Part shown: positions 23,501 to 64,000 of the stretch, piece after piece
How the letters are laid out: every line of letters begins with the position of its first letter
Position numbering within the stretch: the stretch's first letter is position 1
NCBI GenBank assembly: GCA_949987565.1
Contig: OX465115.1
Location: 3,940,004-4,004,003 of the forward strand
Length of the DNA stretch: 64,000 bases
Reading direction: 5' to 3'
DNA from: Luidia sarsii
Taxonomy: Eukaryota > Echinodermata > Asteroidea > Paxillosida > Luidiidae
Made by a program: the position numbers and the translations under genes
Notes under the pieces: model-generated
Told to the model about the DNA's origin: nothing
The model's database searches: none
The model's input: the letters and a program-made list of their open reading frames with translations, nothing else

Positions 23501-24766
23501 ATAGAGGGCGTCCTTCACGACCGTGCCGGCTCTCTTTTATTCGGGTGTTCTCGTGCCCGACAAACGGCGACGAAAGTGCGATTTAAGATCGACAGAGTAA
23601 CGAAAACAGCAGCAGCAGCAACATCAACAGCAACAACAGCACACGGTGCTTCGATAAGCTTCTACACAAGCCAGCAGGCCCGGCTGACTGTGACGTCATC
23701 ACCTTTCCCCTAAATTACCGTAATCTTATAATGGGACTTTTATTGCAACGAAAAACTCATTATTAACTGATTAAAATTGTTGATAAAAGGCATCGGGTAT
23801 GAAAAAAAAATCAGTAGAATATCCAATTTACATTATTTCTGCATAACGTTGTCCGTTACAGCACCAAATCCTTACGGCTACGACACGCAGAATGCGCCCC
23901 AGCGGCAACCTGCCGGCCAGGGACGACCACAGAAGCCGCCGAGCCAGCCAAAGCCGAACCCGTACGGCTACGACACGCAGAACGCGCCCCAACGTCAACC
24001 CGCCGGCCAGGGACAACCGCAGAAGCCGCCCAGCCAGCCAAAGCCGAATCCGTACGGCTACGACACGCAGAACGCGCCCCAACGTCAACCCGGCGGCCAG
24101 GGACGACCGCAGAAGCCGCCCAGCCAGCCAAAGCCGAATCCGTACGGCTACGACACGCAGAATGCGCCCCAACGGCAACCCGCCGGCCAGGGACGACCGC
24201 AGAAGCCGCCCAGCCAGCCAAAGCCGAACCCGTACGGCTACGACACGCAGAACGCGCCCCAACGTCAACCAGCCGGCCAGGGACGACCGCAGAAGCCGCC
24301 CAGCCAGCCAAAGCCGAACCCGTACGGCTACGACACGCAGAATGCGCCCCAACGTAGACCTGGTGGTGGCCATCAGGGACGACCGCAGCCCCCGCCGCCC
24401 GCTCCACCGGGCAATCGCGCCCCGCCGCCACGGCAGCCGCCACCACCACCACCGCCCGGCGGCCCGCCGGCAGCGGGCGACCCGGCCTACCGTCCGCGGC
24501 CAGCTGGTCGCCGTCCCGCCGCGCCCGGCCCGCGCCCGGACCAGGCGGGGCCGGGGCCGCCCGGCCTGCCGTCCGGTCTGCTCGACTTCACGGAACCCAT
24601 CGGGTTCGACGAGCCGGACACGGACTTCGACAACGAGTTCCCTCTGCAAGACGAACCGTCCTCTGCTGCTGCTGACCCCGTGAAGACCAGCTTTTACGAT
24701 CCCATCTCCGCGTGCACTCTGTTAATCCCTGCGTTCACACTGGTACTGACGTCGTCACTGTGCTGA
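20502..24766 (+). CDS. Secreted or GPI-anchored TSP1 protein with PYGYDTQ repeats, 3 exons
   Basis: Exons: 20502-20550, 21985-22182, 23862-24766, giving 1152 nt and 383 residues. Exon 1 encodes a signal peptide (MRFSLTLLSCFFVIEI). Exon 2 is one TSP1 module: WGKWSAWDQC (stacked tryptophans), CDVTCGGGG and six cysteines. Exon 3 carries five complete and one partial 30-residue repeats (PNPYGYDTQNAPQRQP + AGQGRPQKPPSQPK), a proline-rich stalk, an acidic patch (DEPDTDFDNEF) and a hydrophobic C-terminus ACTLLIPAFTLVLTSSLC that fits a GPI-attachment signal. All introns are phase 1. Intron 2 uses a GC donor (CAG then GCAAGA) and a normal AG acceptor; the frame works only with it. The downstream gene shares the TSP1 and PYG motifs. 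I do not recognise the orthologue; function in adhesion or matrix contact is inference. Confidence 0.8.
20560..20790. repeat. Palindromic ACTAGT/AGTACT microsatellite
   Basis: Intron 1 begins with runs of TAGTACTAGTAC, TACTACTATTACTAATAG and TAGTAGTAC that are largely self-complementary between 20570-20650 and again at 20735-20800. Confidence 0.75.
21422..21910. mobile_element. Foldback element with a CGTAAG MITE nested inside
   Basis: ACTCTCTAAATGCAAAAG at 21426-21443 is inverted against CTTTTGCATTTTAGAGAGT at 21888-21906. Inner blocks also match inverted: CACTC(G/T)...GTGAAAACCGC against GCGGTTTTCAC. Between the arms lies a CGTAAG hairpin MITE (21588-21726) bounded by TTTCACAAAG and TTTGGTGAAATC. 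It lies in intron 1 of the TSP1/PYG gene. Confidence 0.75.
21588..21726. mobile_element. CGTAAG hairpin MITE (nested copy)
   Basis: It has the same internal order as the copies at 12700-12995: CCTTACGATGTATCGTAA, CAACTTACGATGGATAACCC, GGCCGTATGGTTTCTGTGCA, ATCGTCTTGCGATTGATCG, AAGTTACGACGAGTTTGGTG. It can fold on itself through repeated CGTAA/TTACG words. Confidence 0.8.
22616..22965 (+). mobile_element. TTAA-type MITE (family A), degraded copy
   Basis: The copy is collinear with 56076-56381 from ACACAACATTGGTAAGAT to GACAACGTATGGATGCTATT. The terminal AGCCCC words are lost at both ends. It lies in intron 2 of the TSP1/PYG gene. Confidence 0.75.
22966..23861. other. Rest of intron 2, no gene seen
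   Basis: No coding segment is recognised. A CpG-rich, CAG/CAA-rich patch at 23440-23660 (AGCAGCAGCAGCAACATCAA) might be an alternative promoter or first exon, but no convincing ORF or donor was found. Confidence 0.45.
23866..24385 (+). repeat. In-frame 90-bp coding minisatellite
   Basis: TACGGCTACGACACGCAGAA recurs every 90 bp (about 23872, 23962, 24052, 24142, 24232, 24322). The unit length is a multiple of three, so every copy keeps the frame; differences between units are mostly synonymous (CAGCGGCAA versus CAACGTCAA, AACCCG versus AATCCG) with rare replacements (A to G, R to Q). Confidence 0.93.
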
Positions 24767-25594: not shown

Positions 25595-28500
25595 ATGACT
25601 TCCCGAAGTGCTCATTGGCATTGGATGCTGCTGCTGATGGTTACAATAGCCGAGAGTATACAACTAGTACAAGGACAAGGTAAGGCTGAGAAGTGATTTG
25701 GTGAGATGGATAAAATTACTTCACCCTTTCTTTTTCCATAATATTTTATTATGTACTGTTTATGTCATCCAATAAGTTTAATAAGTAAGACTAGTAAGAG
25801 CGCTGGTGCGTGAAACCAGAGGTCTGGGTTCAAATCACTTGGCTGACCATTGATTTCTTGGTTTCCTTGCAGAGCCGATTCCGGTGCGTCATGAGTACGA
25901 GCCTTACGGCCCGAGGCAAGATCTTCAACCGGGTAAATTTGAGTTTGGGAACTTTACAAAATGCAATGGATCCTTTACGAAGGTCATTGGAGGGTCGAAA
26001 TGGGTTATGGGATGTGCTGGGGTGGCGGCGATGCCTGTTGATGACAGGACCACTTGGGAGGAGAATGCAAAGGGCAGGGAGCACTGTTCAGATCCCAACT
26101 GAAAGCATGCAGCCTCTGTCCGCATAGACAATAAACATCGGCAAGGCCGCCTACACAAGCAGGGAGTTACAGAAGGCACAACGCCCCCTCGCCTAGCTAG
26201 CTCTGCGGTCAACTGCCCTCACTGTGGCAAGCTCTGAAGGGGACGGGTGGGCCGGTATCCTTCGTATGAAGCACCCTCCATGACTTCACCCCGGCTCCAC
26301 CAAATTTCCTTCGTCGGACCCGACGGGTAGCCATCATCATCCAAATTTCTGGCCATGACCAAAGCATGGTACATGTGTGTTATTTTCCCTAAAGGGCAGA
26401 AACCTCCCCTTCTCTTTCTGTCTCTTCCTCTTTCCCTCTCTTTTCTCTGATATCCCCTCCCCCCTTCTTCCTCTCCCAGCCGTGCCGGCGGACGGGGGCT
26501 GGGGCCAGTGGAGCGAGTGGCAGGTCTGCTCGGTGACCTGCGGTCGCGGGGTCAGAGTTCGCGACCGGCGCTGCGACCGGCCGCCCCCCGGCGCCCACGG
26601 TGGCCATCCCTGCTTCGGCCAGAGAGTGGCGAGCGAGTCGTGTCAGGCCGCGCAGCAATGCCAAGCCCAAGGTACGCTTGCTTGGACAGCGACCAGAGAA
26701 CAACTTGAAGTACCCACAGTAGCCCCGAGAAAAATGTAAATCAAATCTGAGTCTGCTCTACAAATACTTCCATGGAAGGTGTTCCTCTGGTCTGGCCGAC
26801 TTGGTCCCCCAGTCAGGACATTTTAAGCGAGCAACCAGGCTGTTTGCCTCCTCTCACCCAATTTTTCAGGTGAAACTTCAATTCAAGCGCAGACGGTTAT
26901 GGCGAGTCGTACGGCGGTGCTGAGCTGTTTCGCTGGCTCGTATATGCAGCGGCACCCGACTGCCACAGTAGCCTGGTACCGCAACGCAGTTAAATCACTT
27001 CGGTGACCATTAATCTCTTCTTTCTTTTGTTTCCTTAATACAGAGCCGATACCTATGGTGGCGCAGAAGGGACATTGCAAATCGCAAATATCTGCAAAGA
27101 TATTTGCAATTCGCATATTTTGTCGCAAATATTTGCGCAAATATTTGCGACCAAATGTGCAATTCGCAAATTTTGTCGCAAATATTTGCGCACATATTTG
27201 CAAATCGCAAATTTTGTCGCAAATATGTGCGCATATATTTGCGACAAAATCTGCGAATTGCACATTTTGTCGCAAATATGTGCGCAAATATTTGCGACAA
27301 AATCTGCAATTCGCAGATTTTGTCGCAAATTTTTTTCAAAGAAGCTAGGGGGCCCAAACCAGTAGTGCTGTAGTGTCGAGATATACATGTATATAGTTCG
27401 TAGTGTCGCATGACTCACTGTGCGGTGCCTTGGTCAAAGGTCGCGTAGTGCGCTGTGGCCACCCCCCCCCTACAAGGTTACAGCACAACGTGAAATGGGC
27501 CTGACACTGTGACTATAATACCGAGTCTCACGGTGTCACGGAACATACACAGCCCTGTTCTTCAATCTCCGTAAATTATACCTTTCCATTCGTTTACAAA
27601 GTAAGAAAACTTCAAAAATCCGTTCGTGACTGTCAACAATACTCCATACTCCAAGTCCCATCGTTGAGCCGGGTCTCACCTCTTCTTCCTTCATGGTCTA
27701 ACACTGTGTGTAGTGATCATCAGCGGTTTCTTATTTTTGTGGCCCTCTAGCTTCTTTGAAAAAAATTTGCGACAAAATCTGCGAATTGCAGATTTTGTCG
27801 CAAATATTTGCGCACATATTTGCGACAAAATGTGCAATTCGCAGATTTTGTCGCAAATATATGCGCACATATTTGCGACAAAATTTGCGATTTGCAAATA
27901 TGTGCGCAAATATTTGCGACAAAATTTGCGAATTGCACATTTTGTCGCAAATATTTGCGCACATATTTGCGACAAAATGTGCGAATTGCAAATATCTTTG
28001 CAGATATTTGCGATTTGCGATGTCCCTTCTGCGCCACCATAGATACCGGCTCGTCCCGCGTACGAGTCTTACAGCCCAAGGCAAGAATTTCAACCGGGTA
28101 AATTTTACTTTGGCAACTGATGCAATGGATCCTTTTTACGAGGGCAGCCATCTTGTGTTAACCGCCATTCAGAGCGGCGTTAACCAAAGCGAGGCTGTGA
28201 GAGGTATACTTTGGTGAACGTGTCCGAATTCATTGGCTACGGCTTCAAATAACACACGAGTCTATGGAAGCCTCTACTAGTTAGCAACCAGCCAATTCCC
28301 GTAGACTTGTGTGTTAGGCCGTGTCCGAATTCATCGGCTACAGCTTCAAATTCCACACACGTCTATGGAAGCCTCTATAGTTTAGCGGCTGCAGCCAATT
28401 CCCATAGACTTGTATTGAGCCGTTTCCGGATTAATTGGCTACGGCTGCAAATTATACACGAGCCTATGGAAGCCTCTAGTTTAGCGGCTGCAGCCAATTC

Positions 28501-31500
28501 CCATAGACTTGTGTGTTAGGCCGTGTCCCAATTCATCGACTACGGCTGCAAATTACACACGAGTCTAGGGAAGCCTCTAGTTTTAACGGCTGCAGCCGAT
28601 TCCCATAGACTAACACTTGTGTGTTAGTTCTGGCCATGACTTAAGCATGGCATATCTTCGCTACAGGGCAAAACACTCTTTCTCTCTTCCTCTCTTTTCT
28701 CCGATTCTTTTCCCTCTTCCTCTCTCAGCAGTGGACGGGGGCTGGGGCCAGTGGAGCGAGTGGCAGTTCTGCTCGGTGACCTGCGGTCGCGGGGTCAGAG
28801 TTCGCGACCGGCGCTGCGACCGGCCGCCCCCCGGTGCCCACGGTGGCCAGCCCTGCTTCGGCCAGAGAGTGGCGAGCGAGTCGTGTCAGGCCGCGAAGCA
28901 ATGCCAAGGTACGCTTTCATGGAGAGCCACCAGAAAGTACCCACAGTAGCCCCGAGAAAAATGTAAACCAAATCTGAGTCTGCTCTACAAATACTTCCAT
29001 GGAAGGTGTTCCCCTGGTCTGGCCGACTTGGTCCCTCCAGTTAGGACATTTTAAGCGAGCAACCAGGCTGTTTGCCTCCTCTCAACCGTACACTCTATCT
29101 ATCCCAATGTGTAGAACAAAGAGGTATCAGGCTAGAGCAGCTTCTTGCCACGTTCTGCTTCTCTCTGGAATTCATTTCCTAATTCGTGTTTCCCACATGC
29201 CTATGATCTTGCCCTTTTTAAAAGAGGAATGTCAATCCTATATCTCCAGCCTTCCCGATTTCTTCCCTATCCCCTTTCCTTAGTCCTTAACCTTGAGTGG
29301 CTTTATATAGCCTTGTTTCGGGCAAATCTGCATAAGTAGAAAAAAAAGTCCGCCCAGGCACTACCTCGCATAGAGCCACTGAAGTACTAACACTTGCCAA
29401 CCACACAATTGGATTTGGCTCGATAATCATATATCCATATCTTAGTGCGCATGGAAGTTACCGTATGTCTCAGTATGGAAACAGCAAGTGCCACACGGAA
29501 CTGACTATTACAGGCGATCTTGTTCGGAAAACTGAACAAAAACTTTCAGGTGAAACTACAATTCAGGAGCAGACGGTTATGGCAAGTCGTACGGCGGTGC
29601 TGAGCTGCTACGCTGGCTCGTATATGCAGCAGCACCCGACTGCCACAGTAGCCTGGTACCGCAACGACGAACCCGTGGAATTACCTGGTAAGGGATGCGG
29701 TAGGAGTGGTGGGGAGGCTGGGGATTAGGCAGGGCAGGTGGAGGCAGGGCCGGCAGATGGGGTTGGGCGAGTTGGGGCAGGGCAGGTTGAGGCAAGGGTG
29801 GGTTGATTGGGATGGGGCAGGGCGACTTGGGGCAGGGTAGGGTGAGTTGGGGCAGGGCAGGCATGGGAGAGGAGTGGGTTGATTGGGGTAGGGTGGTGCG
29901 GGCCAGGGCGGGTTGGGGCAGGGCTGGGTTGATTGGGGCAGGGTGGTGCGGGCCAGGGCGGGTTGGGGCAGGGCTGGGTTGATTGGGGCAGGGCGGTGCA
30001 GTTGGGGCAGGATGGAGCAGGCCAGGGCGGGTTGTGGCTGGGCTGGGTTGATTGGGGCAGGGCGGTGCAGTTAGGGCAGGGTGGTGCAGGCCAGGGCGGG
30101 TTGGGGCAGGGCTGGGTTGATTGGGGCAGGGCAGTGCAGTTAGGGCAGGGTGGTGCAGGCCAGGGCGGGTTGGGGCGGTGCAGTTAGGGCAGAGTGTTGC
30201 AGGCCAGGGCGGGTTGGGGCAGGGGCGGGTTGTGGCTGGGCTGGGTTGATTGGGGCAGGGCGGTGCAGCTAGGGCAGGGTGACTGACTGACTGACTGCAT
30301 TAATTGATTGAGTGACATATCAATGGATTGATTAATTGGTTAATTAATATGCTAGCGGACAATTTGGAACTGGTGAACCTGGCAGACCTTCAGATAGCCT
30401 TTGTAGACAAAAAAGACGAAGGGATCTACGCATGTGCCTTCCAGCAAGATGGCCACCTGGTCTACAATACTGCCATTGTACTCAAAGGTAAGCCTTAGCA
30501 CGCAGGAAAACCGCATTGGCTATGGCTGCAAATGACATGCATGCATGTGGAAGCCGCTTCCTCTATCGTATGAGACCAATTCGCACAGACTTGTTTTGTA
30601 TTTCCAGCTCAAGATAGCAGTGTAGGCCTTCTTCTATAGTGGCTTTTGAAACGCTGAAATGATTTTCATTTTGACATAAAAACATTTTTTTGTTCCATTT
30701 ATTTGGCAGTTAATCTAATTTTGGATCACATTTTGGATGAAGGTAAGAGATAAGTCATTTCATTTGACTTGTTTGTTGACTAATTAATTCATTCATTACA
30801 ATTTGTTTACAACAATTGGCTGTTTGCATCTGAATGAAAGCGGGTGTGTGTGTGATCCCTGGAGATATACAGCAGTTAAATTGCTTCTGACTGGCACCCC
30901 CACCCCGGCAAAGACTAGTAGACAATTAGGGAAGGCCGCCATCTAAGGGCTGGACAGCTCAGATGAAAGTGCACTGGTATGCTAATCCAGAGGCCTTGGG
31001 TTCAAGTCCCGGTCCAGTCAAAGTTGGCAAATTTTCTTAGCCAATTTTTCATTTTCTAAATTCGAATCATTAATAGATAAGTTCTTTAATATGTTTGTTC
31101 ATCCATCAATCCATTCGTTTGTCGGTTCGTCCGTTTCTCCGTCCGTCAATCCATCCACACACTTATGTTCCGTTTCTTTCTCGTAGACAAGATTCATTTG
31201 ATGCACGTGTTGTGGCCCATCTGCCTGCCCGTCCTACTACTAGCTGCTGGACTCTGCTCAATTAGGGGCGAGATTAAGAGGTAACCATTCACCCTAATGT
31301 ACAGATCAATAGGGGCCTACACCTACCGACCCACCAAACACCCGACCGACTAACGAACTGATGGGACGATCGACTGACCGACTGATTGACCAGTCGGCCG
31401 ATTGCCGGACCGAAAGACTGACCGATCAGCCGAATGACCAACCCACTGATTTCTACCATCCGATAACAGGTACAAGAAGAAAGGCATGCCGGCCGAGGTG

Positions 31501-32031
31501 GTGGCTGAAATCAAGCAGAGGAAACTGGAGAACAAACGGAAAAAGGACGAGGCCAAACGTCAGGCCAAACTGGACAAGCAGGAGCGCAAACGACAGAAGA
31601 AGGCGGCCGCTGCCCCCGAGAGGCAGCCCCTCGTAGAGGAGGGGGGTGCCGCGGCACCTGCGCCACCTGCGGCGCCTTCAGCACCTGGGCCGAGCGGGCC
31701 TGCACCGCCCCCGCCACCGGCACCTGGGGCACCTCCACCACCGGCACCTGGGGCACCTCCGCCACCGCCGGGGCCTGCGGCACCCATGGCACCACCTATG
31801 GCACCTGCAGCACCACCTATGGCACCACCTATGGCACCTTCAGCACCGCCTATGGCACCTCCAGGCCCTCCTGCAGGCCCACCACCTAGGGCACCTCCCC
31901 CGGGCCCCAGTGGGCCACCTCCCCCGGGCCCCAGTGGGCCACCCCCTCCGGGCCCCAGCGGGCCGCCCCCGCCCCCACCGGGCGGTGGTGGGGGACCTCC
32001 ACCTCCCCCTCCCCCTCCCCCACCCCGTTGA
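25595..32031 (+). CDS. Type I membrane receptor: PYG motif, 2 TSP1, Ig, TM, proline-rich tail
   Basis: Proposed exons: 25595-25679, 25873-25932, 26480-26671, 28729-28908, 29550-29687, 30356-30487, 30710-30742, 31187-31280, 31470-32031; 1476 nt, 491 residues. Exon 1 is a signal peptide (HWMLLLMVTIAES). Exon 2 encodes a short HEYEPYGPRQDLQPG motif similar to the upstream gene's repeat. Two TSP1 exons follow (WGQWSEWQVCSVTCGRG, six cysteines each, nearly identical). The Ig domain is split over two exons, with VLSCYAG (first Cys), ATVAWYR (Trp) and DEGIYACAF (D.G.Y.C). The membrane segment is LWPICLPVLLLAAGLCSI. The tail starts basic (KRKKDEAKRQAKLDKQERKR) and ends in ~120 residues of PPMAPP and PSGPPPPG repeats suited to EVH1, SH3, WW or profilin binding. 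Ectodomain introns are all phase 1. Two intervening exon copies (26873-26986; 27043-28094) are broken and must be skipped. Orthologue unknown; UNC5-like order is not matched. Confidence 0.78.
25780..25845 (+). repeat. SINE fragment at the duplication edge
   Basis: It carries AAGACTAGTAAGAGCGCTGG and CCAGAGGTCTGGGTTCAAAT (B box). The left boundary of the tandem exon duplication falls in or right next to the B-box sequence. Confidence 0.6.
25831..26986 (+). repeat. Tandem duplication, unit 1
   Basis: Unit 1 runs from the intron sequence AAATCACTTGGCTGACCATT through exon 2, TSP1 exon and the first part of the Ig exon. Unit 2 begins at about 26990 with AAATCACTTCGGTGACCATT and continues to the complete Ig exon ending 29687. 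Matching introns retain long near-identical stretches (for example CCACAGTAGCCCCGAGAAAA at 26716 and 28938), so the event is recent or homogenised by gene conversion. Confidence 0.88.
26873..26986 (+). pseudogene. Truncated Ig exon (duplication breakpoint)
   Basis: The acceptor TTTTTCAG and the frame are intact and the translation parallels the complete exon 29550-29687 up to VAWYRN. At 26986 the exon is fused to intron sequence (CAGTTAAATCACTT), loses its last ~8 codons and its GT donor, and reads into a stop at 27003-27005. Because neighbouring exons are phase 1, skipping it keeps the frame. Confidence 0.85.
27043..28094 (+). pseudogene. Exon 2 copy split by a foldback transposon
   Basis: The exon starts after ACAG (27041-27042) as AGCCGATACC, is interrupted at 27054-28041, and resumes with GATACCGGCTCGTCCCGCGT to the donor CCGG|GTAAAT at 28094. 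Ignoring the insert and one TSD copy, the reading frame still corresponds to the intact exon 25873-25932 (PIP..., YE.Y.PRQ...QPG) with no stop. As it stands it cannot be a normal short exon. Confidence 0.82.
27054..28041. mobile_element. 988-bp foldback element with ~295-bp TIRs and 6-bp TSD
   Basis: The ends TATGGTGGCGCAGAAGGGAC and GTCCCTTCTGCGCCACCATA are perfect inverted copies flanked by GATACC (27048-27053 and 28042-28047). The arms (27054 to about 27350; about 27745 to 28041) are filled with alternating TTTGCG and CGCAAA words such as GTCGCAAATATTTGCGC, so each arm can also fold internally. The ~395-bp centre (27351-27744) is unrelated single-copy-looking DNA without an ORF. Non-autonomous; superfamily uncertain. 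Confidence 0.88.
28205..28625 (-). repeat. ~95-bp tandem array, related to 50290-50660
   Basis: Four to five units carry GAATTCATTGGCTACGGCTT, CACACGAGTCTATGGAAGCC and GCTGCAGCCAATTCCCATAG. It is the reverse complement of the array at 50290-50660; one more half unit lies at about 30510-30600. It is absent from the corresponding intron of duplication unit 1. Confidence 0.8.
29080..29345 (+). pseudogene. 3' fragment of a non-LTR retrotransposon (reverse-transcriptase tail)
   Basis: Two overlapping frames give RTKRYQARAAS and then PRSASLWNSFPNS ... AYDLALFKRGMSILYL. The arrangement R.RYQ...PRSASLWNSLP....LALFKRG is the typical extreme C-terminus of LINE reverse-transcriptase polyproteins. A one-base frameshift separates the two parts. 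A CCTTGTTTCGGGCAAATCTG 3' tail follows. It is inserted in the intron of duplication unit 2 and is absent from unit 1, so it is younger than the duplication or was lost from unit 1. Confidence 0.75.
29690..30285 (+). repeat. G-rich minisatellite
   Basis: About 600 bp of GGGTTGATTGGGGCAGGGCG, GTGCAGGCCAGGGCGGGTTG and related words in the intron that splits the Ig domain, directly after the donor at 29687. G-runs every 6-10 bases could form G-quadruplexes on the transcript. Confidence 0.9.
30845..31060 (+). repeat. tRNA-derived SINE, near-complete copy
   Basis: Order: GATCCCTGGAGATATACAGC, CACCCCGGCAAAGACTAGTA, GGAAGGCCGCCATCTAAGGG, A box GACAGCTCAGATGAAAG, CCAGAGGCC, B box GGGTTCAAGTCCCGGTCCAG, tail TTTTCTTAGCCAATTTTTC. 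This is the reference for the shorter copies in the window. It lies in the intron before the membrane-segment exon. Confidence 0.8.
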
Positions 32032-34009: not shown

Positions 34010-35025
34010 GGACTTTATTGTTGATGGTGTTACTGTTTTCTTTGCTCTTGACGATGTTACCGCTGCTGTTGTGACTTTTGTTGCTGTTGTTTACCGCTGC
34101 TGTTGTGAAGTTTGCTGCTGTTGTTGCTGTTATTGCTGTGAATTCTGTTGCATGTGAATGCTGCGAATTCTGGTTGTTGCTGTGACTTGTTAGTGTTGTT
34201 AATGCGGCTGTTGTTGCTGTGACATTTGTTTTTGTTTTTGCTGTGAATTGTGTTGCTGTTGTTGCTGCTGTTGTTGCTTTACTATTACTGTGTTTTTGTT
34301 GATGTTATTGCTGTTGCTGTTGTTGCTACTGCAGAGGTTGCTACACTCGATATGATTCTTGCTGTTGTTATTCTTTCCTGTTAGTGCTGCTGCAGTTAGT
34401 TACTGTTGCTGCTGTTACTGTTGTTCTTGCAGTTACTGTTGCTGTTGTTGCTATTATTGCTGTTGCTGCAGTTACTCTTGATGTTGCTATTGTTACTGCT
34501 GTTGCACTTACTGTTGCTATTGTTGCTGTAGTTACTGTTGCTGTTGTTGCGTTTACTGTTGCTGTTGCCGTTACCATTACTGTTGCTATTGTTACTGTCA
34601 TTGCTGCAGTTACTGTTGCTATTGTTACTGTCATTGCTGCAGTTACTGTTGCTGTTGCTACTGTTGTTGCTGCTGCAGTTACTGTTGCTGCTTTTTTCTA
34701 TTGTTACTGTTGCTGTTGTTGCTGCAGTTACTGTTGCTGTTGTTGCTATTGTTACTGTTGCTGCTGCAGTTATTATTGCTGTTGTTGCAATTGTTACTGT
34801 TGCTTTTCCTGCTGAAGTTACTGTTGCTGCTGCAGTTATGGTTGCTGTTGTTGCTATTGTTACTGTTGCTGCTGCAGTTATTGTTGCTGTTGTTGCTATT
34901 GTTACTGTTTCTGCTGCAGTTATTGTTGCTATTGTTATTGTTACTGTTGCTGTTCCTGCTGCAGTTACTGTTGCTGTTGTTGCTGCATTTACTGTTGCTG
35001 TTGTTGATGATGCTGTTGTTAACTA
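34010..35025 (+). repeat. Compound GTT/GCT/ACT trinucleotide-type repeat, ~1 kb
   Basis: About 1 kb consists of GTTGCTGTTGTTGC and GCAGTTACTGTTGCTG words with period 3 and an overlying 15-24-bp order (TTGCTATTGTTACTGTTGCT). Every frame is open for long distances, giving Leu-rich, Val/Ala-rich or Asn/Ser-rich translations; this comes from composition, not coding. Confidence 0.9.
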
Positions 35026-48518: not shown

Positions 48519-51500
48519 ATGTGCACCATGCGTCCTAATGCGGCGGTGCACCAGCGACCAAGTGTGATCGACAAGTTAGCGTCGTTGACAGCGAGTTCGA
48601 TACAATTCATTCACATTAGCAGCGGCGGGATGAGCTTCGAAAGCAGCATTTCTCAGGGCGGAAAGCTCAAAATTACGGTAAGAATGTCTATCTAAAAATC
48701 GTCTTAGTGAAAGGAGTGAATTCGATCGCCCTGATGTGATCCAAGTGTCGTGTTTGACAATTGAAGAAGTTTTATTACAACTTCTAGTTCTTGTTATTTT
48801 TAATTTTAGCAACCGGCAATGCGGCATCCACGCCTAGTGACAGTGCAGTGCGCCCTTGACCTTTCTTGCAAAACTTCCTTGAGATGTCAATTTAAATTTT
48901 CATCTCGTATTAACTATTATAATTATCACTTTTATCAATATCAGGCTGCGTTCACGGTGCCCGGGAAAGTTACAATGAATATTAACACATTGTTTTCTTG
49001 AAATCCACGAAGAAAAAGTTAGTTACTTACGTGATTCATGGAATGATGGAGGTAGAGAGGGATTGTAACGTCAATGAAATTTGACCTGAATCACGACTAC
49101 AGTACAGTACAATTTTACAAAATGGTGTGTGCATCTAAAACTTTCTTCATGTAAATTTCAAAACGTTTTGAGTACCTGGTGTTCTGACGGAATGGTTATA
49201 ATTTTAGCTGTGAATGGTTGGTAAAATAACACACATTCAGGTTTTGTGGCAGGGCAGAGAATTTGCGCAATAACTTTCGAGTTTCGGTCTGACTTTCTGT
49301 CACTTTTTCATCAACTGATAAAGGAAGCAGTAACTGAACAGGGATGCAAGTCCACCTCACATTCACACAAATTCTGTCATTCTTCACTCAAATCATGATA
49401 GTTGGACCCCCTTTCCAAACAATGGAATCAAATTAAGTAAAACAAATTCCAGAATAGAGGTTTTTCACAATTGTCTGCAGGAGCGTCCAAATCCGCAAAA
49501 GCGCATGCAAATATCGAATCTGAGTTTTTCCATTGGTGATTTGATGACTCGAAGGTACACTTCTCGTTCCAAGTACGTGCGCGTGAATTGAAAGCTGACC
49601 GGCAAAAAAGCAAGTGATTGAGTGGAAAGCCTCCATACGAAAAACATCTTTGAAATAAGGAAATATTGAGCCAGATGCTTACACACAAATCCAACTCCAG
49701 TTGGTTTTTTTTCATGCCTAATCTGCCCTTTTAATTATCCTCGACCCAGATGGCGGTGACAGTAAGATGAGGCATGCGGTCCCACCCTGACGACCGACGC
49801 CCGGATTTCAGATGGAGTTCGTCGACACCAAACTCCACGAGGCCGTGCGCTACGGCGACACCAACCTGGTGGAGAGCGCCCTCAGGGACGGCCTGGACCC
49901 CAACGCCATCGGGCTGTACCGCTGGAGCCCGCTGCACGAGGCGGCCAGCGCTGGAGACCTGGACATCCTCTGGCTGCTCCTGCAGTTCAAAGGTCAGTCC
50001 AGACCAGCGACCGTTCTTCCCACATCAAACTCGCAGCGTAGCGTCCTTTCGTTTGTGCGCGTGAATCCGAAATCCCAGCAGGAGATACATCTGTAACCAG
50101 CTGATAATTTCAGCGTCCAGTCCAATCAGACTGGTGGTCGATTTCTTCAAACCCATCGTAACTTGCGATCAATCGGAAGACAATGTGTGATGCCAAGAAA
50201 AACATTTGGCCCATTTCAACTTACAATGGGTTATCGATTGTATGTTGAGTGAGGATGAATCGTAAGGCTTCATGAAATCCTGCACAGTCTTCAACACACC
50301 AAGTCAATGGGAATTGCTAGACTCGCGTGTAATTTGAAGCCGTAACCAATGCAATCGGACAGTGCCTGACACACAAGTCTATGGGAATTGGCTGCAGCCG
50401 CTAAACTAGATGCTTCCATTGACTCCTGTGTAATTTGAAGCCGTAGGCAATAAATTTGGTCACAGTCTGACACACAAGTCTATGGGAATTGGCTGCAGCC
50501 GCTAAACTAGAGGCCTTCATTGACTCGTGTGTAATTTGAAGCCGTAGCCAAACAATTTGGTCACGGTCTGATGCTCAAGTCTATGGGCATTGGTTGCAGC
50601 CGCTTAACTCGGGGCTTGCATAGACTCGTGTGTAAAATGGAGCCGTAGCCAAAGAGCTTTGAAACATGGGTCTCATTGAAGACTTTTATTTTGTCCCCTA
50701 GGCGACCCCAATTGCAAGGACGACCTCAACGGCTGCACTCCGGTCCACTATGCTTGCATGGAAGGACATGCTGAGTGTCTGCAGGCATTACTGGACATGG
50801 GAGGGCGCTGTGACATTGCCAACGCCGATGGAGAGACTGGTTTGGATGTAGCCATCGGAAAGTGCCGGGAATTGCTGGACGAACAAAGTACGCTGACCTT
50901 TGGATTACCCCAGTGCCTAAGGTCGCTGTCTTGGTGCCCCTTGGTACTTCATGTCAATACATTGGTGCCCCTGGTCATTGCCTTGGCCGCCCTGGGTCAT
51001 TGCCTCACTGCCCCCTGGTCATTGCCTTGCTGCCCCCTGGTCATTGCCTTGGTGCCCCTGGTCATTGCCTCAGTGCCCCCTGGTCATTGCCTTGCTGCCC
51101 CCTGGTCATTGCCTTGCTGCCCCCTGGTCATTGCCTTGGTGCCCCTGGTCATTGCCTCAGTGCCCCCTGGTCATTGCCTTGGTACCCCCTGGCCATTGCC
51201 TCAGTGCCCCCTGGCCATTGCCTTGGTGCCCCTGGTCATTGCCTTGGTGCCCCTGGTCATTGCCTTGGGGCCCCTGGGTCATTGCCTTGGGGCCCCTGGG
51301 TCATTGCCTTGGTGCCCCTGGTCATTGCCTTGGTGCCCCTGGTCATTGCCTTGGTGCCCCTGGTCATTGCCTTGGTGCCCCTGGTCATTGCCTCAGTGCC
51401 CCCTGGTCATTGCCTCGGTGCCCCCTGGTCATTGCCTTGGTGCCCCCTGGTCATTGCTTTGGTGCCCCTGGTCATTGCCTCGGTGCTCCTATGGCATTAA

Positions 51501-59101: not shown

Positions 59102-59974
59102 TCAGACATTCACGTACGGCCTATCGTCATTCCAACCCGGCGCTTTCAAGTTCAAGCGGCGAACGGCGAAGACCGGGACAACCGAAGCTCGCGATTTGGC
59201 GGCTGGAGGCGAGGCTACGGCAGCCGGTTCCGGCTCCCCCGCCACCGCCCGGCTCGTCGCCGGCGACTCGGCGGCTGGAGGCGAGGCCACGGCGGCTGGA
59301 GGCGAGGCCTGGCTCGTGGATTTGGGCACCGACGTGGGCACAGAGTAGTGGGGGAAGACGTCCACGGAGCTGACCGAATTAGAAGCCGCCGCTTGGTCAC
59401 CATCTCCGCTTTCCTCTCCCCCCCTGCGCGACGGTGGTTCTTCGCCTTTCCGTCGAGTCCAGCGGGCGTACCCCGCAACCGATACCCCGACAGCCAGGCA
59501 CACAACCACCACCCAGACCCAGAGTGCGGGGTGGATGGATCTAGTCTCCTCCCGAGCCGTCAGGTTAGTCCCCCCTGACGTGCAAGCCGGTGGTGCCTCC
59601 GGCCCGTTCCCGAGTGAGATGTTGTACCAAGCGCTCCCGTCACTCGCGGCGCAGGACAGAGTGAGGGCGCCCTCTCTCAGTGTCGCCGTGGGCACCGTAA
59701 CCCGGCCGGACCCGTCGCCCCAAAATTCGCGACCACTGCCGGACACCAGGGTCACATCGGCGGCCGTCTCGTTCAGACGACACTCCAAGCTGACGAACTC
59801 TTCGTCGTGCGCCGACGACGAAAGGCATACCCGGGGTCGGCTCGGTGATTGGCCAGCACCAGTCACGAGGCCCACGGGGTCGCCGGGGGTCACACTATCA
59901 GCGCCCCACACGCCGCCGACGCCTAGGAGGCAGGCGAGTCCGAACGATGGCCACAGACACCGCCAAATCCCCAT
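59102..59974 (-). CDS. Intronless type I membrane protein, Ig-like ectodomain, C-terminal YVNV
   Basis: 290 residues in one open frame. The start at 59974 (MGIWRCLWPSFGLACLLGVG) was chosen because it opens a clean signal peptide; the frame also has a Met 14 codons upstream. The ectodomain (~120 residues) has four cysteines (RPRVCLSS, LECRLNE, LTLSCAASDG, PPACTSG) and three N-glycosylation sites (NET, NIS, NLT) and reads as a divergent Ig-like fold. The membrane segment is HPALWVWVVVVCLAVGVSVA followed by WTRRK. The ~120-residue tail holds VFPHYSVP, twofold AVASPPAA and the extreme C-terminus PYVNV. A phosphorylated YVNV would fit the pY-x-N-x Grb2-type SH2 consensus, and V-x-V also fits a class II PDZ ligand. 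The next gene (61854-63587) has the same strand, architecture and lack of introns. Orthologue not recognised; surface signalling is inference. Confidence 0.72.
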   Translation of the reverse strand: MGIWRCLWPSFGLACLLGVGGVWGADSVTPGDPVGLVTGAGQSPSRPRVCLSSSAHDEEFVSLECRLNETAADVTLVSGSGREFWGDGSGRVTVPTATLREGALTLSCAASDGSAWYNISLGNGPEAPPACTSGGTNLTAREETRSIHPALWVWVVVVCLAVGVSVAGYARWTRRKGEEPPSRRGGEESGDGDQAAASNSVSSVDVFPHYSVPTSVPKSTSQASPPAAVASPPAAESPATSRAVAGEPEPAAVASPPAAKSRASVVPVFAVRRLNLKAPGWNDDRPYVNV

Positions 59975-61161
59975 GTTCACCAGCTTAACTCTGCTCCGAA
60001 GCCCGTTCTGCGACAATAGCTATAGCACACACGCGCACTGAGAACAGCATCTTGTTAACCAATACACCGCGTACCGCGCGCTCCGTCTTTCGTTTCACAG
60101 AGCCCACGCACATTATACTATCATACTCTCACAACTTCACATGCACACTGTAATCCGAAGCTTTATAGATTCTCAAAAAGCTATCCGAGAAAAAATGCGG
60201 TATTTACGGCCTAGCGGTTTTCCCCTCGAGTTTTCGAAGAAGTAGTTTCACTTTTCGCTGGCGAGAACTGTTTTTCTTTTTCTTTTGTTATTCAAAAACC
60301 GCTTGGGTAATGAAACCAGTGGTATATTAGATATTAAATGTTTTATTAGTACACCACTGAAGTTGATTCTGGCAATATTTTTGATAAGTTGAGAGAACAT
60401 ACAGTTCAAGTTCCCGCAAGATTAGCTTTATGATTCTACGAAAAAGCTTAGTGAGTGGCCTGAAAAATACCCTGTAGTGTATGCACGGAAAATAATTATG
60501 TAAAGCCTATTTGATTTTGGAGGGGGCAATTCTTCAAAGAAAATAATCAAAAATTAGACACCTCACATTTTATACAAAAACCAACCATTCCTATTTTGGA
60601 GGAATCATTCCTCTTTTTTGGTAAAGATTCATCACTTTTTACAAGCTCTTGACAGTAGATTACGATTTTTGGATTGAAAATACACATGTATTCCTTAGTA
60701 TTCCTTTAAGATAGGTTGGCAGCTATGTATACATGTACATTGTAATTCAAAGATCACACGATTTCGGTTGCAAGACGTTCGCTTAAGATTCCAAGAAGTG
60801 ACGTGCACCCAGTCCATTAAAGCAACACATTTCTTATAATAATTGATGTAAAAAAAATCCCCGCGTACTGTTTCAGGAAGTTTGGGGGAAAATAAGTTTC
60901 GCTTTTGGTTTTCACAGAGCTGGGAAAACCAGGAAACCGAATTCATAACACCTGTGGAAATGGATCTTTAAAAAAATATTCTTTAAAAGGGAAACTCGAC
61001 TTTAGCTGAAAAGCTTAGGGGAGGGAGTGCCATGGGAGTGTCGAAGCCAGGTTAAACATCTCTTTGTCAGAAGTATGGTCGTACGGCCGAATTCCCTTTC
61101 CCAACTTCGGTATATGTAATAGCCGACTGAATATCGTGATAATTATTCGATAACATCGAAA

Positions 61162-61853: not shown

Positions 61854-63587
61854 TCAGACGTCGAAGACCGCCGAGGACACCTTGTCAGCTACGTGCTGGG
61901 CGTAGGGCCTGATCACCGGTAGAACGCGATGGACCGGAGGCTTCCCCTTCTTGATGGGCAGCGCGTAGACGGGCGGTGCGGGTGCGGGTGCGGCTCTCGC
62001 CTCGTCGACGACGGTAGAACCGCAGGACGTGTTCCCGGCACCCAGTCCGGCTGCTGGGAGGATGGGGTGCGGGAGGACGGTGGTGGCGGGCTCTCGCTCC
62101 GATCTGATCGGGGAGTGGGTGACGGGCGTGGGTCGGCGCTTGGCGGGTACTGTCTCGGGCGTTTGCTCGAGTCTGGATCTCGTTTCTGTCAACTTGCCGG
62201 GGGTCGACATGGTCAGGGTCCCAGTGGGGAGAGACGTAGCCTGGGCATCGATCATCCTAACTTGGTTCATCACACTAAGAAGCGGTTGTTCTCCCTCCTC
62301 CCCTTCCTCCTCCTCCTCTTCCTCCTCCTTCTCCTCCTCTTCCACCTCCTCCTTTTCCTCCTCTACCCAGGGTGTACCAGGGCATCCGCTAACAGCACCC
62401 CTGGCAGGAGGAGCTCTCATCACCGCCGCTCTTCTGGCTCTTCGTACGTGGACCGCGGCGCACTGGAGAGCCACGCCGGCCAGGCCTACCACAGATAAAG
62501 CGATGGGCAAGACGATCCCTGTCCGGGTCAGTCCCCGATGACAGGGCGCGGTGGCGTAGGTTCCGTTGGGGCACGGATAGAGAGTCAGGACCCGACTCGT
62601 GTGGTTGCGCCCACTCCCCAGGGCGGTGCAGGAGACGCGCACGGCCTCTGCGTCACCGGCACCGCGGGGAGCCACCGGGACGCGCAGGGTGGCGCGCGCG
62701 TCCCCCGGGCCGGCGTCCAGACGCGCCGAGTCGGGCGCGGCCGCCGCCGCCGCCATTGGCAGCGACCAGGCGTAGCCCGCGCCCGACGCGTTGCCGGCCC
62801 AGCGCGCCACGCACTCGAGCGCGAGCGTCGCGACGCCGCCCGACGCAGCCGGCGCGCTCTGGTCGCCGAGGAGACGGACGCGGACGAGGGCTGCCTCCGG
62901 GCTGCCCGACGGGGTCAGGGTGCAGCTTCTGTTGCTCCCCTCGCCTCCCGGGCCTCCCCCTCCCACCGTGCACGTGAACCTCTCCAGCAGGTCCGCCTCT
63001 CGCTGGATGGGGTAGGGCAGGCTGTGCTGCCGCCCGCTCACCGTCAGCTGAGCCTGGAGGATCGCTCGGTCCGCCGATCGCCAGGTCAGTTTCTGCGGCG
63101 CCCCTGTCCACTCCGGTACCTCGCAGACTAAAATCACCGTCTGCCCCACCACGGGGCTGGGCCTCGCCGGCACAGTCCGGCATTTGGGAGTCGGTGGATC
63201 GACCACCGTCAGATATGTGCACGGCGATAGAAATTCTTGAGGGTCTGTCTTAAAGCAAGCGTACATCCCCGTATCGGCATACTGGACACCCCTAATGGTG
63301 AAGAGTTGACGGTTAGGCCCGGGGCTAGTGATTGAAAACCGACTTTCATCGATGTCAGAGCTGAAGGTCACACTACCGCACACTCCGCGTGTATTGAGAG
63401 AAGAGAAATTGCATTGCGTACTGGAGAATCCCCATTGTACACTGCAGGCGTCTCCACTGGTTCCAATATCGCAGAGAAATGAGGCATTGCTGCCCACAAG
63501 TACCGTCAGAGGCGCCGGCGCTCCGGTACGACTGGACGCGGTCGCGAGACCCAGAGTCAGGCAAAGGACCGCCGTGCGAAGCGCCAT
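61854..63587 (-). CDS. Intronless type I Ig-superfamily receptor with acidic and tyrosine-containing tail
   Basis: 577 residues in one open frame. The start at 63587 (MALRTAVLCLTLGLATASS) opens a signal peptide; the frame extends 44 codons further upstream without one. Three Ig-like domains follow: V-like with VGSNASFLCDIG, SVQWGF and DTGMYACFK (D.G.Y.C signature); a second with VILVCEVPEW, LTWRS and RFTCTVGG; a third with LALECVARW, YAWSLP and VRVSCTALG. Membrane segment GIVLPIALSVVGLAGVALQC. The tail has a Glu-rich run (VEEEKEEVEEEEKEEEEEEE), then QPLL, VYALPIKKGKPP, RPYAQHV and the C-terminus SSAVFDV, a class II PDZ-type end (F-x-V). The codons are very GC-rich, unlike the flanks. With the gene at 59102 it forms a same-strand intronless pair. 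I cannot name a family; a recognition or adhesion receptor is inference. Confidence 0.78.
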   Translation of the reverse strand: MALRTAVLCLTLGLATASSRTGAPAPLTVLVGSNASFLCDIGTSGDACSVQWGFSSTQCNFSSLNTRGVCGSVTFSSDIDESRFSITSPGPNRQLFTIRGVQYADTGMYACFKTDPQEFLSPCTYLTVVDPPTPKCRTVPARPSPVVGQTVILVCEVPEWTGAPQKLTWRSADRAILQAQLTVSGRQHSLPYPIQREADLLERFTCTVGGGGPGGEGSNRSCTLTPSGSPEAALVRVRLLGDQSAPAASGGVATLALECVARWAGNASGAGYAWSLPMAAAAAAPDSARLDAGPGDARATLRVPVAPRGAGDAEAVRVSCTALGSGRNHTSRVLTLYPCPNGTYATAPCHRGLTRTGIVLPIALSVVGLAGVALQCAAVHVRRARRAAVMRAPPARGAVSGCPGTPWVEEEKEEVEEEEKEEEEEEEEGEEGEQPLLSVMNQVRMIDAQATSLPTGTLTMSTPGKLTETRSRLEQTPETVPAKRRPTPVTHSPIRSEREPATTVLPHPILPAAGLGAGNTSCGSTVVDEARAAPAPAPPVYALPIKKGKPPVHRVLPVIRPYAQHVADKVSSAVFDV

Positions 63588-64000
63588 CTCGACCGCGCAG
63601 AGGGACGCTGCGCTGCGCTGCTGCGCTCCCGATCCCGGGCGGCGCTGCCAGGAAACGTGAACGGAAATTTTCAACCAGCTCTGTGCTGACGGACTGCCGC
63701 AGCGAGGTATGCATGCCAATAAATTACGAATGACGACGATGGATAGACCTATCTATAGACTAATGTTGTTTCCAACTTTCGTTTAGCAATGACGCTTCAC
63801 GTGATGCGGAAATTATTCACAGGTAGGCCTAAAAGGATCGCCTGGACATAAGAAATGGTTGGTTAGGTAAAATGTTAATTATCCATGTTCACTGCCACAA
63901 CCAACTGGAAAAATATCACACAAAATCCAGAAAGGCTAAATCTCAACATCGCAGACAAGATGTTTTCGACGAAGGACTTCCAAGGTTCAACCCGACGCGA
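63588..64000. other. 5' flank of the last receptor gene
   Basis: GC-rich up to about 63710 (likely 5' UTR and promoter of the minus-strand gene), then AT-rich DNA to the window end with nothing recognised. Confidence 0.5.

What the first reader, a model, noticed from the sequence alone, without database searches (positions are those of the whole stretch)
25831..29690. Tandem exon duplication caught in progress, adding a second TSP1 domain
A segment holding exon 2, the TSP1 exon and part of the Ig exon was duplicated in tandem. The breakpoint cuts the first Ig exon at 26986, and the duplicated exon 2 is split by a transposon. Since all these exons are phase 1, skipping both broken exons yields a protein with two TSP1 domains and one Ig domain in frame (491 residues). 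This is a rare direct view of domain gain.
Basis: partly seen in the sequence, partly recalled or inferred. Interest (0 to 1): 0.75.

Follow-up and report, generated by a model that had tools for sequence, protein, structure and literature searches.

The report
Starfish gene with duplicated TSP1 exon
Part of a starfish cell-surface protein gene was copied in tandem, giving it a second intact exon for a TSP1 domain beside two broken exons, so the gene could make a protein with none, one or two such domains; this is a real but known kind of event, and it does not look recent.

Summary
In a starfish-like gene (signal peptide, exon 2, TSP1, Ig split over two exons, transmembrane helix, proline-rich tail), 25828-26986 was duplicated into 26989-29666. 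The left copy's Ig exon is cut at 26986. The right copy's exon 2 carries a 988-bp foldback-type element with a 6-bp target-site duplication. Both TSP1 exons are open, symmetric (phase 1) and have good splice sites; skipping both broken exons gives 491 residues with two TSP1 domains. A search of the own genome found the TSP1 exon only here. The four starfish gene models found have one TSP1 or none, and Acanthaster isoforms X1 and X2 differ by exactly this exon, so it was probably an optional cassette before it was copied.

'Caught in progress' is not supported: non-coding parts upstream of TSP1 differ by 11%, exon 2 by 20%, and each copy has large stretches the other lacks. TSP1 and intron 3 differ by only 2-5%; later gene conversion is a suggestion. 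Whether a two-TSP1 mRNA exists is untested. A fish dmrt1 gene has nearly the same layout, so this is a new member of a known kind.

The parts
25595..25679 (+). Exon 1, signal peptide; outside the duplicated unit; ends in phase 1
   Evidence: signal peptide by inspection
25828..26986 (+). Left copy of the duplicated unit (end of intron 1, exon 2A, TSP1-A, truncated Ig exon)
25873..25932 (+). Exon 2A, 60 nt, phase 1-1, intact
25984..26346 (+). 363-bp stretch of intron 2 in the left copy that does not align to the right copy; no other copy in the window
26480..26671 (+). TSP1 exon A, 192 nt, phase 1-1, splice sites intact
26870..26986 (+). Truncated first Ig exon (IgA): acceptor kept, donor lost; frame closes at TGA 27004
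26987..26988 (+). Duplication junction: 2 bases that match neither parent
   Evidence: read by eye
26989..29666 (+). Right copy of the duplicated unit
27044..28097 (+). Exon 2B, split by the element: 1054 nt between its splice sites, not a multiple of 3, stops inside
27054..28041 (+). 988-bp foldback-type element in exon 2B; inverted ends 98% alike over 306 bp; 6-bp target-site duplication at 27048-27053 and 28042-28047
   Evidence: folded
28145..28627 (+). 483-bp stretch of intron 2 in the right copy that does not align to the left copy; mostly a 101-bp tandem repeat (28188-28579)
28729..28908 (+). TSP1 exon B, 180 nt, phase 1-1, splice sites intact
29088..29543 (+). 456-bp stretch of intron 3 in the right copy only
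29550..29687 (+). First Ig exon of the right copy (IgB), complete, with donor
30356..30487 (+). Second Ig exon; outside the duplicated unit
30710..30742 (+). Short stalk exon (33 nt)
31187..31280 (+). Transmembrane exon
   Evidence: hydrophobic stretch by inspection
31470..32031 (+). Cytoplasmic exon: charged stretch, proline-rich tail and stop

Best explanation
This is a real intragenic tandem duplication in a starfish TSP1-Ig transmembrane gene. A break in intron 1 was joined to a break inside the first Ig exon, probably by end joining (2 unmatched bases at the join; inferred). This left a donorless Ig fragment between two copies of exon 2 plus TSP1. Exon definition should skip the fragment. 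Exon 2B was also spoiled by a foldback-type element, and productive mRNA must skip it too. Because the exons concerned are phase 1, the gene can still give in-frame mRNAs with two TSP1 domains (491 aa), one (431 or 427 aa) or, by phase, none. The single TSP1 exon was probably already an optional cassette, as annotated in Acanthaster, which would have made an extra copy easy to tolerate. Shown: layout, phases, open TSP1 exons, starfish gene models with one TSP1 or none. Inferred: splicing, expression and the order of events.
For: Repeat order and junction. 2 of 2 own-genome matches to the TSP1 exon lie here (the tool warns that such counts are lower bounds). Phases and 491-aa product. Two TSP_1 stretches in the 380-residue front part, six cysteines in each copy. 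IgA reaches a stop at 27004, its best in-frame GT scores 0.6, and there is no AATAAA or ATTAAA on the + strand in 26600-29600. Acanthaster X1 and X2 differ by exactly the 59-residue TSP1 exon. TSP1 stretches by Pfam in five relatives: X1 one, X2 none, Patiria none, Asterias one, Amphiura two. TSP1-A has fewer differences than expected had it drifted freely while B stayed fixed: 4 of 176, binomial P about 0.03.
Against: No transcript was available. In the aligned part the TSP1 copies differ by 3 amino-acid changes and 1 silent change, no sign of protein-level selection; gene conversion could explain their closeness as well. The IgB acceptor scores poorly (-0.3) and IgA's better (7.4), so splicing into the dead exon could compete. 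The splice weights are recalled vertebrate values.
Confidence: 0.62

Rival explanations
1. The duplication is real but one TSP1 exon is not used: mature mRNA carries a single TSP1 (E2A to T1B, or T1A to IgB), and the other copy is on its way to loss.
For: TSP1 differences are 3 replacement to 1 silent. Forms with one TSP1 or none are what the starfish gene models show. Both single-TSP1 splices are in frame.
Against: Both TSP1 exons keep open frames, both splice sites and six cysteines; the 12-nt length difference keeps the frame. TSP1-A is closer to B than free drift would predict, though gene conversion could explain that.
Confidence: 0.25
2. Assembly artefact: two alleles were laid end to end.
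For: Tandem joins of haplotypes are a known assembly error (recalled). TSP1 and intron 3 differ by only 2-5%, which could be allelic in a marine invertebrate.
Against: Differences are 11-20% in intron 1, exon 2 and intron 2, with long unalignable stretches. The join falls inside a coding exon with 2 unmatched bases. The window has no N, and no third TSP1 copy was found in the assembly.
Confidence: 0.07
3. The truncated Ig exon acts as a poison exon: its intact acceptor draws T1A splicing into a stop at 27004, lowering output or giving a short secreted TSP1 fragment.
For: IgA acceptor scores 7.4 against -0.3 for IgB; the stop begins 18 bases after the break; possible donors lie at 27600 inside the element (7.5) and at 28097 (6.6).
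Against: No good donor close to the exon and no poly-A signal on the + strand in 26600-29600; an internal exon without a donor is normally skipped (established exon-definition model, recalled).
Confidence: 0.06

Closest known systems
dmrt1 of the flatfish Solea senegalensis (PMC7605655; abstract and passages seen)
   Same: Intragenic tandem duplication whose edge cuts an exon: layout I-II-III-I'delta-II'-III'-IV-V, with a truncated exon left between the two copies; a mobile element lies at the locus.
   Different: There the broken exon is the first, the paper proposes a SINE as the cause, and cDNA was studied. Here the broken exon is an Ig exon, an element splits a second exon, and there is no cDNA.
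Duplicated H2d exon of vertebrate COE/EBF genes (PMC2394523; abstract and section 14 read)
   Same: A tandem copy of an exon adds a motif to the protein; intron phase decides whether both copies can be used together.
   Different: The authors propose that COE needed a new donor site to bring phases into line, and found no skipping of the exon. Here the exons are already symmetric, and an Acanthaster isoform model lacks the exon.
TSP1-Ig transmembrane proteins of starfish and a brittle star (Acanthaster LOC110979143 X1/X2, Patiria, Asterias amurensis, Amphiura)
   Same: Same order: optional TSP1, one Ig, hydrophobic stretch, proline-rich tail.
   Different: The four starfish models have one TSP1 or none; the window has two nearly identical ones. 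The brittle star has two by Pfam, much less alike than the window's pair by inspection, so a separate event is likely.
Tandem exon duplication in general, often giving mutually exclusive exons (recalled; PMC6071210 seen in a search listing only)
   Same: Neighbouring near-identical exons of the same phase in one gene.
   Different: Here two broken exons lie between them, and using both copies is compatible with the frame.

Membership tests
Intragenic tandem exon duplication | Two adjacent copies in the same order and orientation, introns included | tested here: met
Intragenic tandem exon duplication | One join between copies, inside one gene | tested here: met
   Junction at 26986/26989; TSP1 exon found at two places in the genome, both here
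Intragenic tandem exon duplication | Physical linkage on one molecule | not testable with these tools
   No reads held
Functional domain gain (two TSP1 in one protein) | Both exons open, symmetric and with splice sites | tested here: met
Functional domain gain (two TSP1 in one protein) | mRNA joining 26671 to 28729 | not testable with these tools
   No transcripts; the best protein hits are 69% identical or less over the Ig-TM region, so none looks to be from this species
Recent event ('in progress') | Copies nearly identical throughout | tested here: not met
   Upstream non-coding 21 of 191 different; exon 2 11 of 56; long unalignable stretches
Echinoderm TSP1-Ig transmembrane protein family | Ig-TM-charged region homologous to the starfish proteins | tested here: met
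   67-69% identity over 95% of residues 172-345 to Acanthaster and Patiria
Foldback-type transposable element | Long inverted ends with internal repeats | tested here: met
Foldback-type transposable element | Target-site duplication | tested here: met
   6 bp at 27048-27053 and 28042-28047
Foldback-type transposable element | Further copies in the genome | not tested
   Genome search unanswered on 14 of 14 tries for the element; no second copy in the window

The most novel reading that the evidence does not exclude
The element itself may have secured the two-TSP1 isoform: its inverted ends would fold the pre-mRNA into a stem of 311 pairs whose base sits on the last intron base of the exon 2B acceptor (27043 paired with 28052), hiding that exon from the spliceosome and making T1A join T1B, so that a transposon insertion locks in a domain gain.
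Probability: 0.08. Interest if true: 0.6.

Novelty: new member of a known kind. Interest (0 to 1): 0.36.

Why it matters
If the two-TSP1 mRNA is made, it shows how a protein can gain a domain despite messy breakpoints: when the exons are symmetric and the domain is already optional, broken by-products can simply be skipped. Relatives with one TSP1 or none give the likely before-state, and RNA from one animal would settle the outcome.

Tried and rejected
Recent event: rejected on divergence and unalignable stretches. Rescue of IgA by a nearby donor: the best in-frame GT within the exon (26908) scores 0.6; the best of any frame before the stop (27002) scores 3.3 and breaks the frame; the gene's donors score 6.2-11.2 (weights recalled). 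IgA as a last exon: no AATAAA or ATTAAA on the + strand in 26600-29600. Gene conversion over TSP1 and intron 3: kept only as a suggestion. The two-rate scan was matched in 0 of 300 permutations, but its best low tract runs from the last bases of intron 2 through the Ig exon (20 of 495 against 31 of 229), so coding constraint can contribute; intron 3 against upstream non-coding gives p = 0.02, with TSP1 silent sites p = 0.0075. The upstream non-coding count includes 4 bases of exon 2. Segment borders were chosen by me from BLAST and repeat output; gapped columns were left out of the counts. Species: not resolved; of 85 papers (15 listed) the nearest genome size in the listing was Astropecten irregularis, 475.80 Mb against 470.9 Mb here, which is no identification. 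Literature: one search found no paper; the papers listed (3 of 3; 3 of 3; 10 of 25; 8 of 27) do not name this gene in title or abstract start; (5 of 6 listed) was for the element and led nowhere. Protein searches scored only the 7992 and 7991 candidates sharing most words, so relatives may be missing; (445 candidates) missed Asterias and Amphiura.

Full report
What is there. The window lies in a 470.9-Mb genome of 227 contigs. The gene's best database relatives are starfish proteins, so it is taken to be a starfish; the species was not resolved. The gene runs on the + strand: exon 1 (25595-25679, signal peptide), exon 2, a TSP1 exon, an Ig domain on two exons, a short stalk exon, a transmembrane exon and a proline-rich cytoplasmic exon ending at 32031.

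The duplication. Five direct-repeat families link the two halves in the same order, with BLAST E-values of 1.5e-165, 1.5e-51 and 1.3e-20 between them. The left copy is 25828-26986, the right copy 26989-29666, with two bases between them that match neither parent (by eye). The join cuts the first Ig exon at 26986. Exon 1 and the exons after the first Ig exon lie outside the unit. A DNA search of the whole own genome with the TSP1 exon gave two matches, both here; the tool states that such counts are lower bounds.

Broken and intact pieces. The truncated Ig exon keeps its acceptor but reads into a stop at 27004; its best in-frame GT scores 0.6, against 6.2-11.2 for the gene's donors (weights recalled from the vertebrate consensus). 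Exon 2B is split by a 988-bp element with inverted ends 98% alike over 306 bp and a 6-bp target-site duplication; it now measures 1054 nt, not a multiple of three, with stops. TSP1-A (192 nt) and TSP1-B (180 nt) are both open, phase 1-1 and flanked by good sites; the joined front part has two PF00090 stretches, and each copy has six cysteines. Using only one TSP1 exon gives 431 or 427 residues, also in frame.

Relatives. Three searches gave five proteins with the same architecture: four, a fifth (Amphiura); one search found three of them again. The other eight hits matched over 13-33% of the query, carry TSP1 domains, and were not used. By Pfam, TSP1 stretches are: Acanthaster X1 one, X2 none; Patiria none; Asterias amurensis one; Amphiura two. 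Acanthaster X1 and X2 are identical except for 59 residues that are exactly the TSP1 exon. So in starfish one TSP1 exon is the likely starting state, and it was probably an optional cassette. These are database gene models, not transcripts checked here; the sample is four starfish models from three species, and two of the searches were capped.

Age and history. Differences between the copies, counted over 724 ungapped columns (51 differences), are: end of intron 1 with the first 4 bases of exon 2, 5 of 45; rest of exon 2, 11 of 56; intron 2, 5 of 45 and 11 of 101; TSP1, 4 of 176; intron 3, 8 of 184; Ig, 7 of 117. Stretches that do not align are 363 bp on the left and 483 and 456 bp on the right, besides the 988-bp element; whether each is an insertion here or a loss there is not decided. 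This does not look like an event in progress, though no clock was available. The rates differ along the unit. A scan for a low-difference tract was matched in 0 of 300 permutations, but its best tract runs from the last bases of intron 2 to the end of the Ig exon, so coding constraint contributes. Non-coding DNA alone gives p = 0.02, and adding TSP1 silent sites gives p = 0.0075. Later gene conversion over TSP1 and intron 3 would explain this; it is not proven. The Ig fragment differs as expected if it drifted freely while the other copy stayed fixed (7 seen, 6.4 expected); TSP1 differs less than that (P about 0.03). Against protein-level selection, 3 of the 4 TSP1 differences change an amino acid.

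How it most likely works. An internal exon without a donor is normally skipped (recalled), and a 1-kb exon with stops would destroy the protein if kept. The likely productive mRNAs therefore join E2A-T1A-T1B-IgB, or leave out one or both TSP1 exons. The RNA of 27000-28130 folds into one long hairpin (minimum free energy -658.9 kcal/mol; no shuffles at this length). Its stem has 311 pairs between the arms and starts at 27043, the last intron base before exon 2B, paired with 28052. It may help hide that exon; this last step is speculation.

Known parallels. The dmrt1 gene of Solea senegalensis has the layout I-II-III-I'delta-II'-III'-IV-V with a truncated exon between copies (PMC7605655, abstract and passages). 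The vertebrate COE genes gained a motif by tandem exon duplication (PMC2394523, abstract and section 14). The case is therefore a new member of a known kind, with an unusually clear anatomy.

Noticed in passing
23771-24766 (+): Upstream open frame of 331 aa with a 90-bp tandem repeat (six copies) coding for a 30-residue proline- and glutamine-rich unit and a hydrophobic end; no Pfam match at E 0.01.
   Followed up: no
29819-30310: G-rich minisatellite in the intron between the two Ig exons.
   Followed up: no
28145-28627 and 50317-50655: The 101-bp tandem repeat in intron 2 of the right copy has an inverted relative (about 81% alike) at 50.3-50.7 kb.
   Followed up: partly
61854-63752 (-) and 59102-60019 (-): Two long open frames on the other strand; the first matches Ig domains, the second has no Pfam match at E 0.01.
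   Followed up: no
34020-35000: Long imperfect trinucleotide-like repeat, GTTGCT-rich.
   Followed up: no
28726-28731: The TSP1-B acceptor reads CAGCAG, a tandem acceptor that could give products one residue apart, both in frame (by inspection).
   Followed up: no
P0005 (Asterias amurensis protein): Its N-terminal part repeats a unit around PYDVSNQGIGRGQGSP several times, so the region before TSP1 also grows by repetition in this family.
   Followed up: no
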